DNA of 64,000 bases from Bacteroidia bacterium (GTDB lineage Bacteria; Bacteroidota; Bacteroidia; JADZBD01): contig JAGVMA010000074.1 in NCBI GenBank assembly GCA_020054095.1, forward strand, positions 1-64,000, in the 5' to 3' direction. How positions within the stretch are numbered: position 1 is the stretch's first letter; the number at the start of each line of letters is the position of its first letter. The notes below the pieces were generated by a model, which made no database searches, was not told where the DNA came from, and worked only from the letters and a program-made list of their open reading frames with translations. Of this stretch, positions 26,374-30,570 are shown piece by piece. The position numbers and the translations under genes were made by a program.

Positions 26374-29202
26374 TTATTTACTCAAATACAAATTTCGCTC
26401 GCCATACACTTGCTGAAAAAATTCATCTTCTAAGTTTTCGATAAAGTAAATGGCTTCGCCCGTTGATTTCATTTCGGGGCCAAGTTCTTTATTCACATCC
26501 TGAAATTTATTGAACGAGAAAACGGGTACTTTAATTGCATAACCGTTTTTCTTTGGGCTGAATTTAAAATCTTTCACTTTCTTTTCGCCCAGCATAAGTT
26601 TGGTGGCATAGTTTACATACGGTTCGTCATAAGCTTTGGCTATAAAAGGCACTGTGCGCGATGCGCGTGGGTTTGCTTCTATTACATACACCACTTCATC
26701 TTTTATGGCAAATTGAATGTTTATTAATCCTTTTACTTGCATTGCCTTGGCGATTTTTTTAGTGATATCTTCAATTTGTTTTATCACGTTATCGCTCAAG
26801 TCGAATGGCGGTAAAACTGCATTGCTATCGCCACTGTGTATGCCGGCAGGTTCAATGTGTTCCATAATTCCTATTATGTAGCTGTCATCGCCATCGCAAA
26901 TTGCATCGGCTTCGACTTCTATTGCTTTATCAAGGAAATGGTCTAACAAAACTTTATTGCCCGGAATATCTTTAAGCATATTCACCACATGGGTTTCTAA
27001 TTCTTGTTCGTTAATCACAATTTTCATTCCTTGTCCGCCAAGCACATAAGATGGGCGAACCAAAAGCGGAAAACCTAATTCGCGCGAAAGTTTTACGGCT
27101 TGTTCGGCATCCTCTATTACACCAAATTTTGGGTACGGAATTTTTAAATCGCGAAGCAGTGTTGAAAAACTGCCGCGGTCTTCGGCCAAATCGAGCGACT
27201 TAAAACTTGTGCCAATAATTTTAATACCGTACTTATCCATTTTTTCGGCAAGTTTTAAAGCCGTTTGCCCACCGAGCTGAACAATTACACCTTCGGGTTT
27301 TTCGTGTAAAATAATATCATAGATGTGCTCCCAGAAAACGGGTTCGAAATAAAGTTTATCCGAAATATCAAAATCGGTAGAAACCGTTTCGGGGTTACAG
27401 TTTATCATAATTGTTTCATAACCACATTCTTTTGCGGCAAGCACACCGTGCACACAACTGTAATCAAACTCGATGCCTTGCCCAATGCGATTGGGACCCG
27501 AGCCAAGCACTACAATTTTCTTTTTATTTGATGGTGTGCTTTCGTTTTCATCTTCAAAAGTAGAGTAATAGTAAGGCGTTTTTGCAGCGAATTCGGCAGC
27601 ACAGGTATCTACTAATTTAAACACACGCTTAATGCCCATTTCGTTTCGCTTCGTAAATACTTGGCTTTCCAGGCAGCGGAGTAAATGCGCTATTTGCCTG
27701 TCGGCAAATCCTTTTCGCTTTGCTTCGCGCAATAATTCTTTTGGAATAGTATCGAGTGTGTGTTTTTCAATTTCGTTTTCGAGCACTACTAATTCTTCTA
27801 ATTGATTTAAAAACCACGAATCAATTTTTGTTAATTTTTTTATGGTGCTGAAGGGTATGCCTAATTTAAAAGCATCGTAAATATGGAATAGGCGATTCCA
27901 TGATGGGCGTTCCAAACTATCTAAAATTTGTTTTTGGTCGGCTAATCCTTTCCCATCGGCTCCTAAGCCGTTGCGTTTTATTTCTAAACTCTGACAAGCT
28001 TTTTGCAACGCCTCCTGAAAGCTGCGGCCTATGCCCATCGCTTCGCCCACCGATTTCATTTGCAAGCCCAAGTGCCTGTCTGTTCCTTTAAATTTATCGA
28101 AATTCCAGCGTGGTACTTTTACTATCACATAATCAATAGATGGTTCAAAATAAGCCGATGTAGATTTTGTGATTTGATTTTTTATCTCATCTAAATGATA
28201 ACCAATGGCAAGTTTGGCTGCAATTTTTGCAATGGGATAACCGGTGGCTTTACTTGCTAATGCAGAAGAACGCGACACGCGCGGATTAATTTCTATAACA
28301 ATGATTTGGTTTTCGTCATTTGGGTTAACCGAAAACTGGATGTTACATCCTCCGGCAAACTGCCCAATTCCATTCATACATTTAATGGCGAGGTCGCGCA
28401 TTTTTTGGTAGCAGGTGTCGCTCAGTGTCATGGCGGGTGCTACGGTTATACTATCGCCCGTGTGTATTCCCATCGGGTCGAAGTTTTCGATAGAGCAAAT
28501 TATTATTACGTTACCGCCAGCATCGCGCAAAAGTTCAAGTTCATATTCTTTCCAGCCAACTATGCTTTGCTCTACCAGCACTTCGTGCACGGGCGATGCA
28601 TGTAAGCCGCGTGTGAGCAGGGCATCAAATTCTTCTTTTGTATTTACAAAACCACCGCCTGTGCCACCCAATGTAAATGATGGGCGAATTACGAGCGGGA
28701 AGCCAATTTCTTGAGCAATTTCTTTTCCTTCTAAAAAACTGGTGGCGGTGCGGCCTTTACAAACTCCTGCTCCCAAGCCAATCATGCAAAGGCGAAATTT
28801 TTCACGGTCTTCGGTAGTGTGAATAGCATCTGTATTTACGCCCACCATTTTCACATTGTACTTTTTCCAAATTCCGGCTTTTTCACATTCAATAGCAAGG
28901 TTAAGTGCGGTTTGTCCGCCCATTGTTGGCAGTACCGCATCTATGCGATGTTCTCCTTTGTGATTTTCTAATATTTCAATTATTGATTTTTTTGTAATCG
29001 GTTTCAGGTAAATATTATCGGCAGTAACTTTATCAGTCATAATAGTTGCCGGATTGCTATTGATGAGCGAAACGGTAATGCCTTCTTCTTTTAGAGATCG
29101 GCTGGCTTGCGAGCCTGAATAATCAAATTCACAAGCTTGACCAATTACAATGGGGCCGCTACCTATTATTAATATGTGTTTTATACTGTTGTCTTTTGGC
29201 AT
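26374..29202 (-). CDS. carB: Carbamoyl-phosphate synthase large subunit, lacking the allosteric domain
   Basis: Makes carbamoyl phosphate for arginine and pyrimidine synthesis, together with CarA (not in the window). Two ATP-grasp halves are clear: the first begins at [20 protein letters not shown] (residue ~10), the second at [20 protein letters not shown] (~563), each with its ATP- and Mg-binding motifs (for example [20 protein letters not shown] and [20 protein letters not shown]). At 942 aa it stops just after [10 protein letters not shown], whereas E. coli CarB (1073 aa) continues with a ~130-residue allosteric (MGS-like) domain. The ending is clean, so this is a lineage form rather than damage. 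A candidate attenuator lies upstream. Confidence 0.96.
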
Positions 29203-29232
29203 TTTTTGTTTTTTTTTGTTTGAGTATGGTCA

Positions 29233-29266
29233 AAAAAAATCCTCCATTTGTGGTGGAGGATTTTTT
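29233..29266 (-). terminator. Terminator hairpin between carB and the upstream glycosyltransferase
   Basis: Stem ATCCTCCA (29239-29246) with TGGAGGAT (29254-29261) and a 7-nt loop, flanked by A-runs and T-runs on both sides, so it can work in either direction. On the minus strand 8 Ts follow. It lies 30 nt before the carB ATG and downstream of a candidate carB promoter, so it may be an attenuator as well as the end of the glycosyltransferase transcript. Confidence 0.85.
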
Positions 29267-29288
29267 AGCGGACGATTATTTTCTTCAT
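29265..29288 (-). CDS. Candidate leader peptide of carB (MKKIIVR)
   Basis: A 7-codon frame with ATG at 29286-29288 and TAA at 29265-29267. It begins 9 nt after a perfect -7 box and stops exactly at the base of the terminator hairpin. The last sense codon is CGC (Arg), arginine being an end product of the pathway; two Ile codons and a Val codon precede it. The layout promoter - short ORF - terminator - carB is that of a transcription attenuator. One Arg codon is weak evidence, and no alternative antiterminator pairing was found by eye. Confidence 0.35.
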   Translation of the reverse strand: MKKIIVR

Positions 29289-29297
29289 TTCAAGGTG

Positions 29298-29305
29298 CAA
29301 ATATA
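29298..29305 (-). promoter_or_regulatory. -7 box upstream of the carB leader
   Basis: Minus-strand TATATTTG matches TAnnTTTG exactly, 95 nt before the carB ATG. It is the only exact match found in the 29203-29364 interval. No TTG at the expected -33 distance (one lies 10 nt upstream, too close). Confidence 0.4.
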
Positions 29306-29364
29306 TAGTATAGTGCAAAACGTGCTAATTAAAGTATTAACAAGTTTTCAATAAGTGCAGAAAG

Positions 29365-30570
29365 CTATTTGTTGTTGATTAATTGACTGTAAAATTGGCT
29401 AAGCCGATTACAGATATCGGCATTGCTATACTTTGTGGCTGCAAGTTCTCGGGCATTTTTGCCCACTGTTTTACAATGCTCGTTATCATTTAATAGTTGA
29501 GTAACAGCATCGGCAAATTGCTGAGGTGTATCTGCAATTAAAATATCGTGGTTATTGGTGTACTCAATTCCTTCGGCAGCTATAGTGGTAGCAATTATAG
29601 TTTTGCCCATAGCCATGCCTTCTATAATTTTTATGCGCATACCGCCACCCGAAAGCAACGGAACTATCATCAAATTTTTGGAATGTATGTATCCATGTGC
29701 ATCTGCTACTTCACCGTCAATAATAATATTTGTGGCGTTTAAGTTTTTTAGCCAAGCGGGCATGTGGCGGCCTGCAAGGTGTAGTTTTAAATTTGTGTTT
29801 TGTTTCTGCACAACGGGCCACACATCGTTTATCAGCCATTTAACGCCTTCTTCGTTAGGCATCCAGTTCATGGCGCCTAAATGAAAAACGGTATTTACTT
29901 CCGGAGAATTAGTTGCGGTTCTGTAATCATTTATGTTAATACCAAACGGAAAACTGAGTGTCGGCACATTACAACCCATGCTTTTGAAAACATTGGCATC
30001 GGCTTGTGTAATGCATATAATAGCATCGTAACGGTTAAGCATTTGCAACTCGTAATTTTTTAAGCGCAATGCAAGCAAGTTAAAATACCATCGTTTTAAT
30101 GGATTACTAACCGCTTTAGCCATTCGTTTCCAAATCATAAACTCTACATTTTGCGAACGCAAAACTATTTTTGCATTGCTATGTTTTCTTATTGTGGCCA
30201 AATACGGGGTGGCGTAAAGCGTTTCTAAATGAACAATATCAAACTTGTTTGCTTTTAGCAGTTTTTTTAATTCTCCCTCAAAACTTGCAGAAAAAAAACG
30301 GCTTATGTTGTACGATTTTGATGAGAATAAATTGGCAAAAGCTTGCAATGGCTTTACTCTTGTGTCAATAAAAACCGATTGATAATTTGTTTTTTTTCGA
30401 TAATCTGCATCTATTTCTTCGGTGGGTGTATTGTGTTTATGTGTTTTAATTGCCATCACGGTTACATCGTTTTCGGCCTTAATAAGGCCTTCGGTTAAAA
30501 CGTGCATGGCTTGTGTACCGCCATCGGTTGGCGGAAACGGAATTTTACTACAGAGTTGTAAAATTTTCAT
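29365..30570 (-). CDS. Glycosyltransferase, GT4 family
   Basis: A 401-residue GT-B glycosyltransferase. N-terminus MKILQLCSKIPFPPTDGGTQ with a Gly-rich loop; FDIVHLETLYATPYL near residue 112. The donor-binding half has VFHLGAMNWMPNEEGVKWL (~227), LHLAGRHMP (~262) and the family Glu region LLSGGGMRIKIIEGMAMGK (~307). The motif FHLGAMNWMPN is typical of cell-surface polysaccharide GT4 enzymes. Monocistronic between a terminator and a divergent sugar-nucleotide reductase, which points to surface glycan synthesis. Specificity unknown. Confidence 0.88.
   Translation of the reverse strand: MKILQLCSKIPFPPTDGGTQAMHVLTEGLIKAENDVTVMAIKTHKHNTPTEEIDADYRKKTNYQSVFIDTRVKPLQAFANLFSSKSYNISRFFSASFEGELKKLLKANKFDIVHLETLYATPYLATIRKHSNAKIVLRSQNVEFMIWKRMAKAVSNPLKRWYFNLLALRLKNYELQMLNRYDAIICITQADANVFKSMGCNVPTLSFPFGININDYRTATNSPEVNTVFHLGAMNWMPNEEGVKWLINDVWPVVQKQNTNLKLHLAGRHMPAWLKNLNATNIIIDGEVADAHGYIHSKNLMIVPLLSGGGMRIKIIEGMAMGKTIIATTIAAEGIEYTNNHDILIADTPQQFADAVTQLLNDNEHCKTVGKNARELAATKYSNADICNRLSQFYSQLINNK

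What the first reader, a model, noticed from the sequence alone, without database searches (positions are those of the whole stretch)
29233..29305. carB may be controlled by a leader-peptide attenuator
Between the upstream glycosyltransferase and carB lie, in order on the minus strand, an exact -7 box, a 7-codon ORF (MKKIIVR, last codon Arg), a strong terminator beginning at its stop codon, and carB 30 nt later. No other -7 box exists between terminator and carB, so carB transcripts either read through the terminator or start inside it. CarB here has lost its allosteric domain, which makes transcriptional control by an end product more plausible.
Basis: partly seen in the sequence, partly recalled or inferred. 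Interest (0 to 1): 0.55.

Follow-up and report, generated by a model that had tools for sequence, protein, structure and literature searches.

The report
Terminator hairpin in the carB leader
Between the likely promoter and the start of a carbamoyl-phosphate synthase gene this bacterium has a strong transcription stop signal, laid out as in its own trp, thr and phe attenuators, but the proposed arginine-sensing mini-peptide is not convincing and no examined relative clearly shares the hairpin.

Summary
The described parts are real: exact -7 box (29305-29298, minus strand), 7-codon ORF MKKIIVR (29288-29265), a 13-bp hairpin with a U8 tail (29266-29232), carB at 29202. The box is very likely carB's own promoter: a 15-base element 38-39 nt upstream is shared with three other carB promoters of the class. 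The hairpin is unlikely to be the upstream glycosyltransferase's terminator: it lies 98 nt past that stop, while 43 of 49 hairpins after genes here lie within 26 nt. In 1.23 Mb of the genome only five hairpins sit between a -7 box and a nearby gene start with no further box: carB, trpE, thrB, pheA and a hypothetical gene; the trpE, thrB and pheA ones have textbook leader peptides. A leader terminator that makes carB depend on read-through is the best reading. The arginine part is not supported: one Arg codon, an ORF that shuffled or random leaders give in 4-15% of cases, no room for an antiterminator, no such layout at the arginine operon. Of 128 other carB upstreams none has a comparable hairpin there (one weak candidate). 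The short CarB appears class-wide, so it explains nothing here.

The parts
29337..29351 (-). Conserved upstream element TTGAAAACTTGTTAA, 31 nt before the -7 box
   Evidence: The exact 15-mer is in 4 of 109 carB upstreams: the window, L016, L041, L045. TTGTTAA is in 15 of the 109; in 7 of these 15 (window, L005, L010, L016, L031, L041, L045) the box follows at 38-40 nt, in 5 at 48-60 nt, in 3 there is none. The loose TTGTTAA-gap-box pattern is not enriched in the genome: 16 hits against 15 for the reversed control.
29298..29305 (-). -7 box TATATTTG of the carB promoter
   Evidence: Exact TAnnTTTG; highest-scoring site in the 200 nt before carB (7.9 against 3.2 for the next), though its flanks score poorly (-1.46; 10th percentile of 92 relatives -1.37). 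111 of 129 carB upstreams have such a box.
29265..29288 (-). Mini-ORF MKKIIVR*, AUG 9 nt after the box (near-leaderless if the start site is as inferred); translation not shown
   Evidence: near chance expectation.
29232..29266 (-). Intrinsic-terminator hairpin: 13-bp stem (7-bp core TCCTCCA/TGGAGGA), 7-nt loop, U8 tail
   Evidence: the core and loop occur once in the genome at up to 3 mismatches; no Rfam family at gathering score.
26374..29202 (-). carB, carbamoyl-phosphate synthase large subunit without the C-terminal domain (942 aa)
29365..30570 (-). Upstream gene: glycosyltransferase (Glyco_trans_1_4/Glyco_transf_4 domains); its stop codon is 98 nt before the hairpin

Best explanation
The hairpin is a promoter-proximal intrinsic terminator in carB's own 5' leader. 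Transcripts start just after the box at 29305-29298 (inferred, not mapped), some 50-60 nt are made, and RNA polymerase either stops at the U-run (about 29232) or reads through into carB, so carB output depends on read-through. What sets the read-through is unknown. The arrangement would allow a ribosome on the mini-ORF to do it directly: by footprint arithmetic a ribosome waiting at codon 7 (Arg) or at the stop would cover part or most of the core left arm and hinder the hairpin, whereas one waiting at codons 2-6 would not. Shown by sequence: promoter element, hairpin, layout and its company in the genome. Inferred: start site, termination, read-through and any ribosome involvement.
For: (1) Orthologous promoter: TTGAAAACTTGTTAA with the box 38-39 nt on recurs before carB in L016, L041 and L045. 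(2) Position: in 885,115 b, with the first detector, 43 of 49 genes with a hairpin downstream have it within 26 nt of their stop and one at 42; of the five further out, two looked spurious on reading and the others are carB (98), the thrB leader (128) and the trpE leader (133). (3) Company: in 1,231,611 b, with a second detector, 35 hairpins have a gene start within 150 nt; 27 lie within 45 nt of a stop; of the other eight, three have a box after the hairpin and five do not: carB, trpE (MRIILNNNWWWLNS*), thrB (MRTHNSIINITITTITTIRL*), pheA (MTNKNRYYFFFYPTPTKGLRKEIYFCN*) and one hypothetical gene. (4) The class uses such attenuators: of 16 trpE loci of other genomes, one is cut by its contig end; 13 of the other 15 have a leader ORF with two or more Trp codons, the same-family G001 included; the detector flagged a U-tailed hairpin after it in 9 of the 13. 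(5) Strong fold with a U8 tail. (6) Footprint arithmetic with a recalled 16-nt edge: 0 of 7 core nt covered for stalls at codons 2-6, 3 of 7 at Arg7, 6 of 7 at the stop.
Against: No comparable hairpin in 128 other carB upstreams; the same-family G001 has none, and no congener is held. Distance from a stop is a weaker argument with the second detector: 26 of 99 hairpins lie more than 45 nt from the nearest upstream frame end on their strand, most of them not before a gene start. One of the five leader hairpins belongs to a hypothetical gene without a convincing leader peptide, so the layout alone does not prove regulation. The stretches scanned were not a random sample. The box's flanks score poorly. 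The core stem is weaker (-9.2 kcal/mol) than those of trp and thr (-16.3, -16.2). No start site, terminated RNA or response was measured.
Confidence: 0.6

Rival explanations
1. Arginine-sensing leader-peptide attenuator: low charged tRNA-Arg stalls the ribosome at codon 7, which masks the hairpin and lets polymerase into carB.
For: The Arg codon is the only sense codon at which a stalled ribosome would reach the core stem. The AUG lies 9 nt after the box, near the 11, 13 and 16 nt of the genome's thr, trp and phe leaders. Carbamoyl phosphate feeds arginine synthesis (established knowledge); the arginine operon here has an acetylornithine carbamoyltransferase.
Against: One Arg codon; ORF near chance; no conservation; no box-hairpin-gene layout at the arginine operon. 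mRNAs with very short 5' UTRs are a minority in the phylum: about 3.7% under 10 nt in Bacteroides thetaiotaomicron (PMC7366714, passages), 5.5% leaderless in Flavobacterium psychrophilum (PMC9723704, passages). In Salmonella orf34 the Arg codon next to the stop had no part in arginine control (PMC6386406, passages).
Confidence: 0.15
2. Insulating or leftover terminator: the hairpin ends stray transcripts from the glycosyltransferase side and carB uses a weak non-consensus promoter at the hairpin's 3' edge (TTTTTTTG, 29238-29231, 28 nt from the ATG), or constitutive leak, with no regulation.
For: The T-run plus G has five of the six fixed letters of TAnnTTTG at a usual distance from the ATG. 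In the same genome the only exact box before carA lies at the top of a terminator-like hairpin. The hairpin is seen in this genome only among those examined. 26 of 99 hairpins lie more than 45 nt from an upstream frame end.
Against: 98 nt from the upstream stop is outside the usual range of the first detector's count. The exact box with the conserved upstream element is kept. No site between hairpin and ATG is among the six best-scoring sites, though that matrix was built from exact boxes.
Confidence: 0.25
3. An approximately 60-nt small RNA gene (promoter, short transcript, terminator) lying in front of carB, with carB transcribed by leak.
For: Promoter, about 60 nt and terminator make a complete small-RNA unit.
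Against: The hairpin has no similar copy in the genome, no Rfam family matches at gathering score, and the promoter looks like the orthologous carB promoter.
Confidence: 0.05

Closest known systems
trp, thr and phe leader-peptide attenuators, including those of this same genome
   Same: Promoter box, ORF starting 9-16 nt after it, U-tailed hairpin, gene 12-31 nt after the hairpin.
   Different: Those have 14, 20 and 27 codon leaders with repeated regulatory codons and about 95-120 nt between box and hairpin; here 7 codons, one Arg codon, 31 nt.
Pseudomonas carAB leader (leader peptide reported; pyrimidine control possibly by attenuation)
   Same: A carbamoyl-phosphate synthase operon with a reported leader peptide and suspected attenuation (PMC4997734, passages seen).
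   Different: Precedes carA of a carAB operon in another phylum; here carA (C40) and carB (C66) are on different contigs. No sequence comparison made.
Salmonella speF leader orf34 (arginine codons sensed by ribosome pausing)
   Same: A short upstream ORF whose translation affects transcription termination; arginine-codon pausing (PMC6386406, passages seen).
   Different: Two consecutive Arg codons, Rho-dependent termination, and the Arg codon next to the stop was dispensable there.
PyrR- and pyrBI-type pyrimidine attenuators
   Same: Terminator before a pyrimidine-pathway gene; a PyrR gene precedes pyrB in this genome.
   Different: No PyrR binding-loop consensus (recalled, by eye) in the hairpin; the ORF ends at the hairpin and there is no U-rich stretch before it, unlike pyrBI (recalled).

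Membership tests
Leader-peptide transcription attenuator (trp type) | Promoter, then leader, then intrinsic terminator, then gene | tested here: met
   promoter orthology. By sequence only; start site and termination not measured.
Leader-peptide transcription attenuator (trp type) | Leader ORF rich in codons of the end-product amino acid | tested here: not met
   MKKIIVR has one Arg codon of seven, against WWW, Thr/Ile and FFF/YY in the same genome.
Leader-peptide transcription attenuator (trp type) | Leader ORF is translated | not testable with these tools
   Presence alone is near chance: 4-15% of random or shuffled leaders.
Leader-peptide transcription attenuator (trp type) | Alternative antiterminator hairpin | tested here: not met
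   31 nt between box and hairpin; the folds show the terminator and 3-bp helices only.
Leader-peptide transcription attenuator (trp type) | Conserved in relatives | tested here: not met
   0 of 128 other carB upstreams with a comparable hairpin (one weak, mismatched candidate, L025); control: trp leader with 2 or more Trp codons in 13 of 15 loci of other genomes. No congener held.
Premature-terminator (generic) attenuator | Intrinsic terminator in the gene's own leader, not the upstream gene's terminator | tested here: met
   98 nt from the upstream stop against a median of 20 (43 of 49 within 26); but 26 of 99 lie beyond 45 nt by the second detector. By sequence only.
Premature-terminator (generic) attenuator | Regulated read-through | not testable with these tools
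   Needs RNA measurements.
Rfam leader or riboswitch families | Match at gathering score | tested here: not met
   None in the window; best below threshold is Phe_leader at 24.7 bits (cut-off 55), which also matches the opposite strand.
PyrR-regulated attenuator | PyrR binding-loop consensus in the leader | tested here: inconclusive
   By eye against the recalled consensus only: not seen; no profile search of the consensus.

The most novel reading that the evidence does not exclude
A minimal ribosome-operated attenuator: a near-leaderless 7-codon ORF whose stop codon is the foot of the terminator, so that the ribosome itself, at the last Arg codon or the stop, is the antiterminator and no alternative RNA structure is needed.
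Probability: 0.2. Interest if true: 0.6.

Novelty: new member of a known kind. Interest (0 to 1): 0.35.

Why it matters
If confirmed it adds carB to the leader terminators of Bacteroidota and would be an unusually short case, useful for asking how small a ribosome-controlled terminator can be in a phylum with little Shine-Dalgarno use. As it stands it is one lineage-specific element without a known signal. The more general result is the side observation that trp leader peptides in this class often start only a few nt after the -7 box.

Tried and rejected
Upstream gene's own terminator: set aside as the main reading because of the 98-nt distance, with the caveat (26 of 99 hairpins beyond 45 nt). 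Repeat or mobile hairpin: single copy in the genome at up to 3 mismatches. Known RNA family: no Rfam match at gathering score. TTGTTAA plus box as a general promoter element: not enriched (16 against 15 in the control). Loss of the allosteric domain as motive: short frames are class-wide. Co-regulation with arginine or pyrimidine genes: no box-hairpin-gene layout at the argG operon, pyrR-pyrB or carA; a weak hairpin without a box does lie 134-165 nt before the first called gene of the argG operon, a 231-aa ORF without an NCBIfam match. The first hairpin detector missed some hairpins, for instance in L173, so relatives and genome were redone with a second one; the 49-gene distance list rests on the first detector only. 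Two outliers looked spurious on reading (a nearer hairpin missed, an ORF miscalled). Seven literature searches listed no paper on a carB leader in Bacteroidota; only 10 of 39 papers were listed. PMC9723704 (passages) reports clues of leader-peptide attenuation before amino-acid operons in Flavobacterium psychrophilum; the main text of PMC2965389, a survey of premature terminators (passages), does not contain the word carB.

Full report
What is there. On the minus strand, in order: the stop of a glycosyltransferase gene (29365), a 15-base element TTGAAAACTTGTTAA (29351-29337), an exact -7 box TATATTTG (29305-29298), the ORF MKKIIVR* (29288-29265), a 13-bp hairpin with a U8 tail (29266-29232) and carB (29202-26374). 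The stretch folds far better than its shuffles, and the hairpin has no second copy in the genome at up to 3 mismatches.

Is the box carB's promoter? Of 129 carB upstreams (the window's and 128 others, two of them identical), 111 have a TAnnTT[TC]G box within 200 nt of the start. The exact 15-base element is in 4 of the first 109: the window, L016, L041 and L045, with its TTGTTAA 38-39 nt before the box. TTGTTAA alone is in 15 of the 109; in 7 of these (window, L005 of the same family, L010, L016, L031, L041, L045) the box follows at 38-40 nt, in 5 at 48-60 nt and in 3 there is no box after it. The loose TTGTTAA-gap-box pattern is not enriched in the genome (16 against 15), so this looks specific to carB. 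The box is the best-scoring site in the 200 nt before carB, although its flanking letters fit poorly. I take it as carB's promoter; the start site is inferred.

Whose hairpin is it? In 885,115 b of this genome, 49 of 342 genes with at least 40 nt downstream have a U-tailed hairpin within 200 nt after their stop; the median distance is 20 nt, 43 lie within 26 nt and one at 42. Of the five further out, two looked spurious on reading, and the rest are carB (98), thrB (128) and trpE (133). With a second, more sensitive detector on 1,231,611 b there are 115 hairpins; 99 have an upstream frame end within 500 nt on their strand, 73 of them within 45 nt and 26 further off, so distance alone is not decisive. 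Of the 35 with a gene start within 150 nt, 27 lie within 45 nt of a stop; of the other eight, three have a box after the hairpin and five do not: carB, trpE, thrB, pheA and a hypothetical gene. By profile, thrB is above its family cut-off; trpE and pheA match best to anthranilate synthase I and prephenate dehydratase but below the cut-offs. The leader peptides are MRIILNNNWWWLNS*, MRTHNSIINITITTITTIRL* and MTNKNRYYFFFYPTPTKGLRKEIYFCN*, starting 13, 11 and 16 nt after the box. So carB's hairpin keeps the company of attenuators, with one case (L134) that is not obviously one.

Is it a leader peptide for arginine? The evidence is thin. ORFs like this arise in 15% of shuffled leaders (11% with the ATG close to the box) and in 6% (4%) of random ones. 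Of 77 carB leaders of at least 27 nt, 6 (the window's among them) have an ATG 3-14 nt after the box, and only the window's combines it with a hairpin. There is one Arg codon, and 31 nt before the hairpin leave no room for an antiterminator. What can be said for it: among sense codons only a stall at codon 7 would reach the core of the left arm, as would a ribosome at the stop. The arginine operon (argininosuccinate synthase, below cut-off, and acetylornithine carbamoyltransferase), pyrR-pyrB and carA do not share the layout; a weak hairpin without a box lies 134-165 nt before the first called gene of the arginine operon.

Conservation. Of the 129 upstreams, 26 have a U-tailed hairpin; in 20 it lies before the box, in one between two boxes, in three there is no box clear of it, and in two it follows the box: the window and L025, whose hairpin has a mismatch, a T5 tail and an uncertain TTG start. 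As a control for detectability, trpE upstreams were read in the window's genome and at 16 loci of other genomes; one of the 16 (L198) is cut by a contig end, and 13 of the other 15 have a leader ORF with two or more Trp codons, G001 included; two have one Trp codon. The carB hairpin is therefore special to this lineage as far as sampled, but only two species of the order are held.

The short CarB. CarB's matches end at positions 926 of 1058 and 929 of 1052 of full-length models. In one search the 29 loci L005-L033 have open frames of 931-999 aa, while G022, G033 and G058 (41-51% identity) have 1072-1105 aa; that the relatives lack the domain is inferred from these lengths, no domain search was made on them. 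As those relatives lack the hairpin, the shorter CarB cannot be its cause.

Conclusion. A leader terminator through which carB must be read is the best account (0.6); regulation and its signal are open; the arginine peptide is possible but weak (0.15).

Noticed in passing
L194-L210 (trpE upstreams; own genome L138:9947-11356 and upstream): trp leader peptides with two or more Trp codons at 13 of 15 readable loci of other genomes and in this genome; in the nine (own included) with an exact -7 box the start codon (TTG in one) lies 4, 4, 5, 5, 7, 7, 8, 13 and 18 nt after the box, at or near the likely transcript start: near-leaderless attenuator peptides.
   Followed up: partly
L153:5529-5689 and L216:3734-3921: Attenuator leaders for thrB (Thr/Ile-rich peptide) and pheA (FFF/YY peptide) in this genome.
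   Followed up: partly
29337-29351; L016, L041, L045: A 15-base element shared 38-39 nt upstream of the carB -7 box by four genomes; its TTGTTAA-box pattern is not a general promoter element here; possible regulator site.
   Followed up: partly
L217 about 2660-2710 (C40, before carA): The only exact -7 box in the 360 nt before carA, TATTTTTG, lies at the top of a terminator-like hairpin following what reads by eye as the ribosomal protein L17 gene.
   Followed up: no
L134:1480-1670 (minus strand): A leader hairpin before a hypothetical gene (no NCBIfam match), with a box followed at once by ATGATG and a 28-codon ORF; no Rfam match near a gathering score in L134:1-3000.
   Followed up: partly
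26374-29202: Short CarB frames, without room for the C-terminal domain, are the rule among class relatives.
   Followed up: partly
L026, L028 carB leaders: An ORF MFPVWCII* starting 4 nt after the -7 box, in two genomes of one genus, without a hairpin.
   Followed up: no
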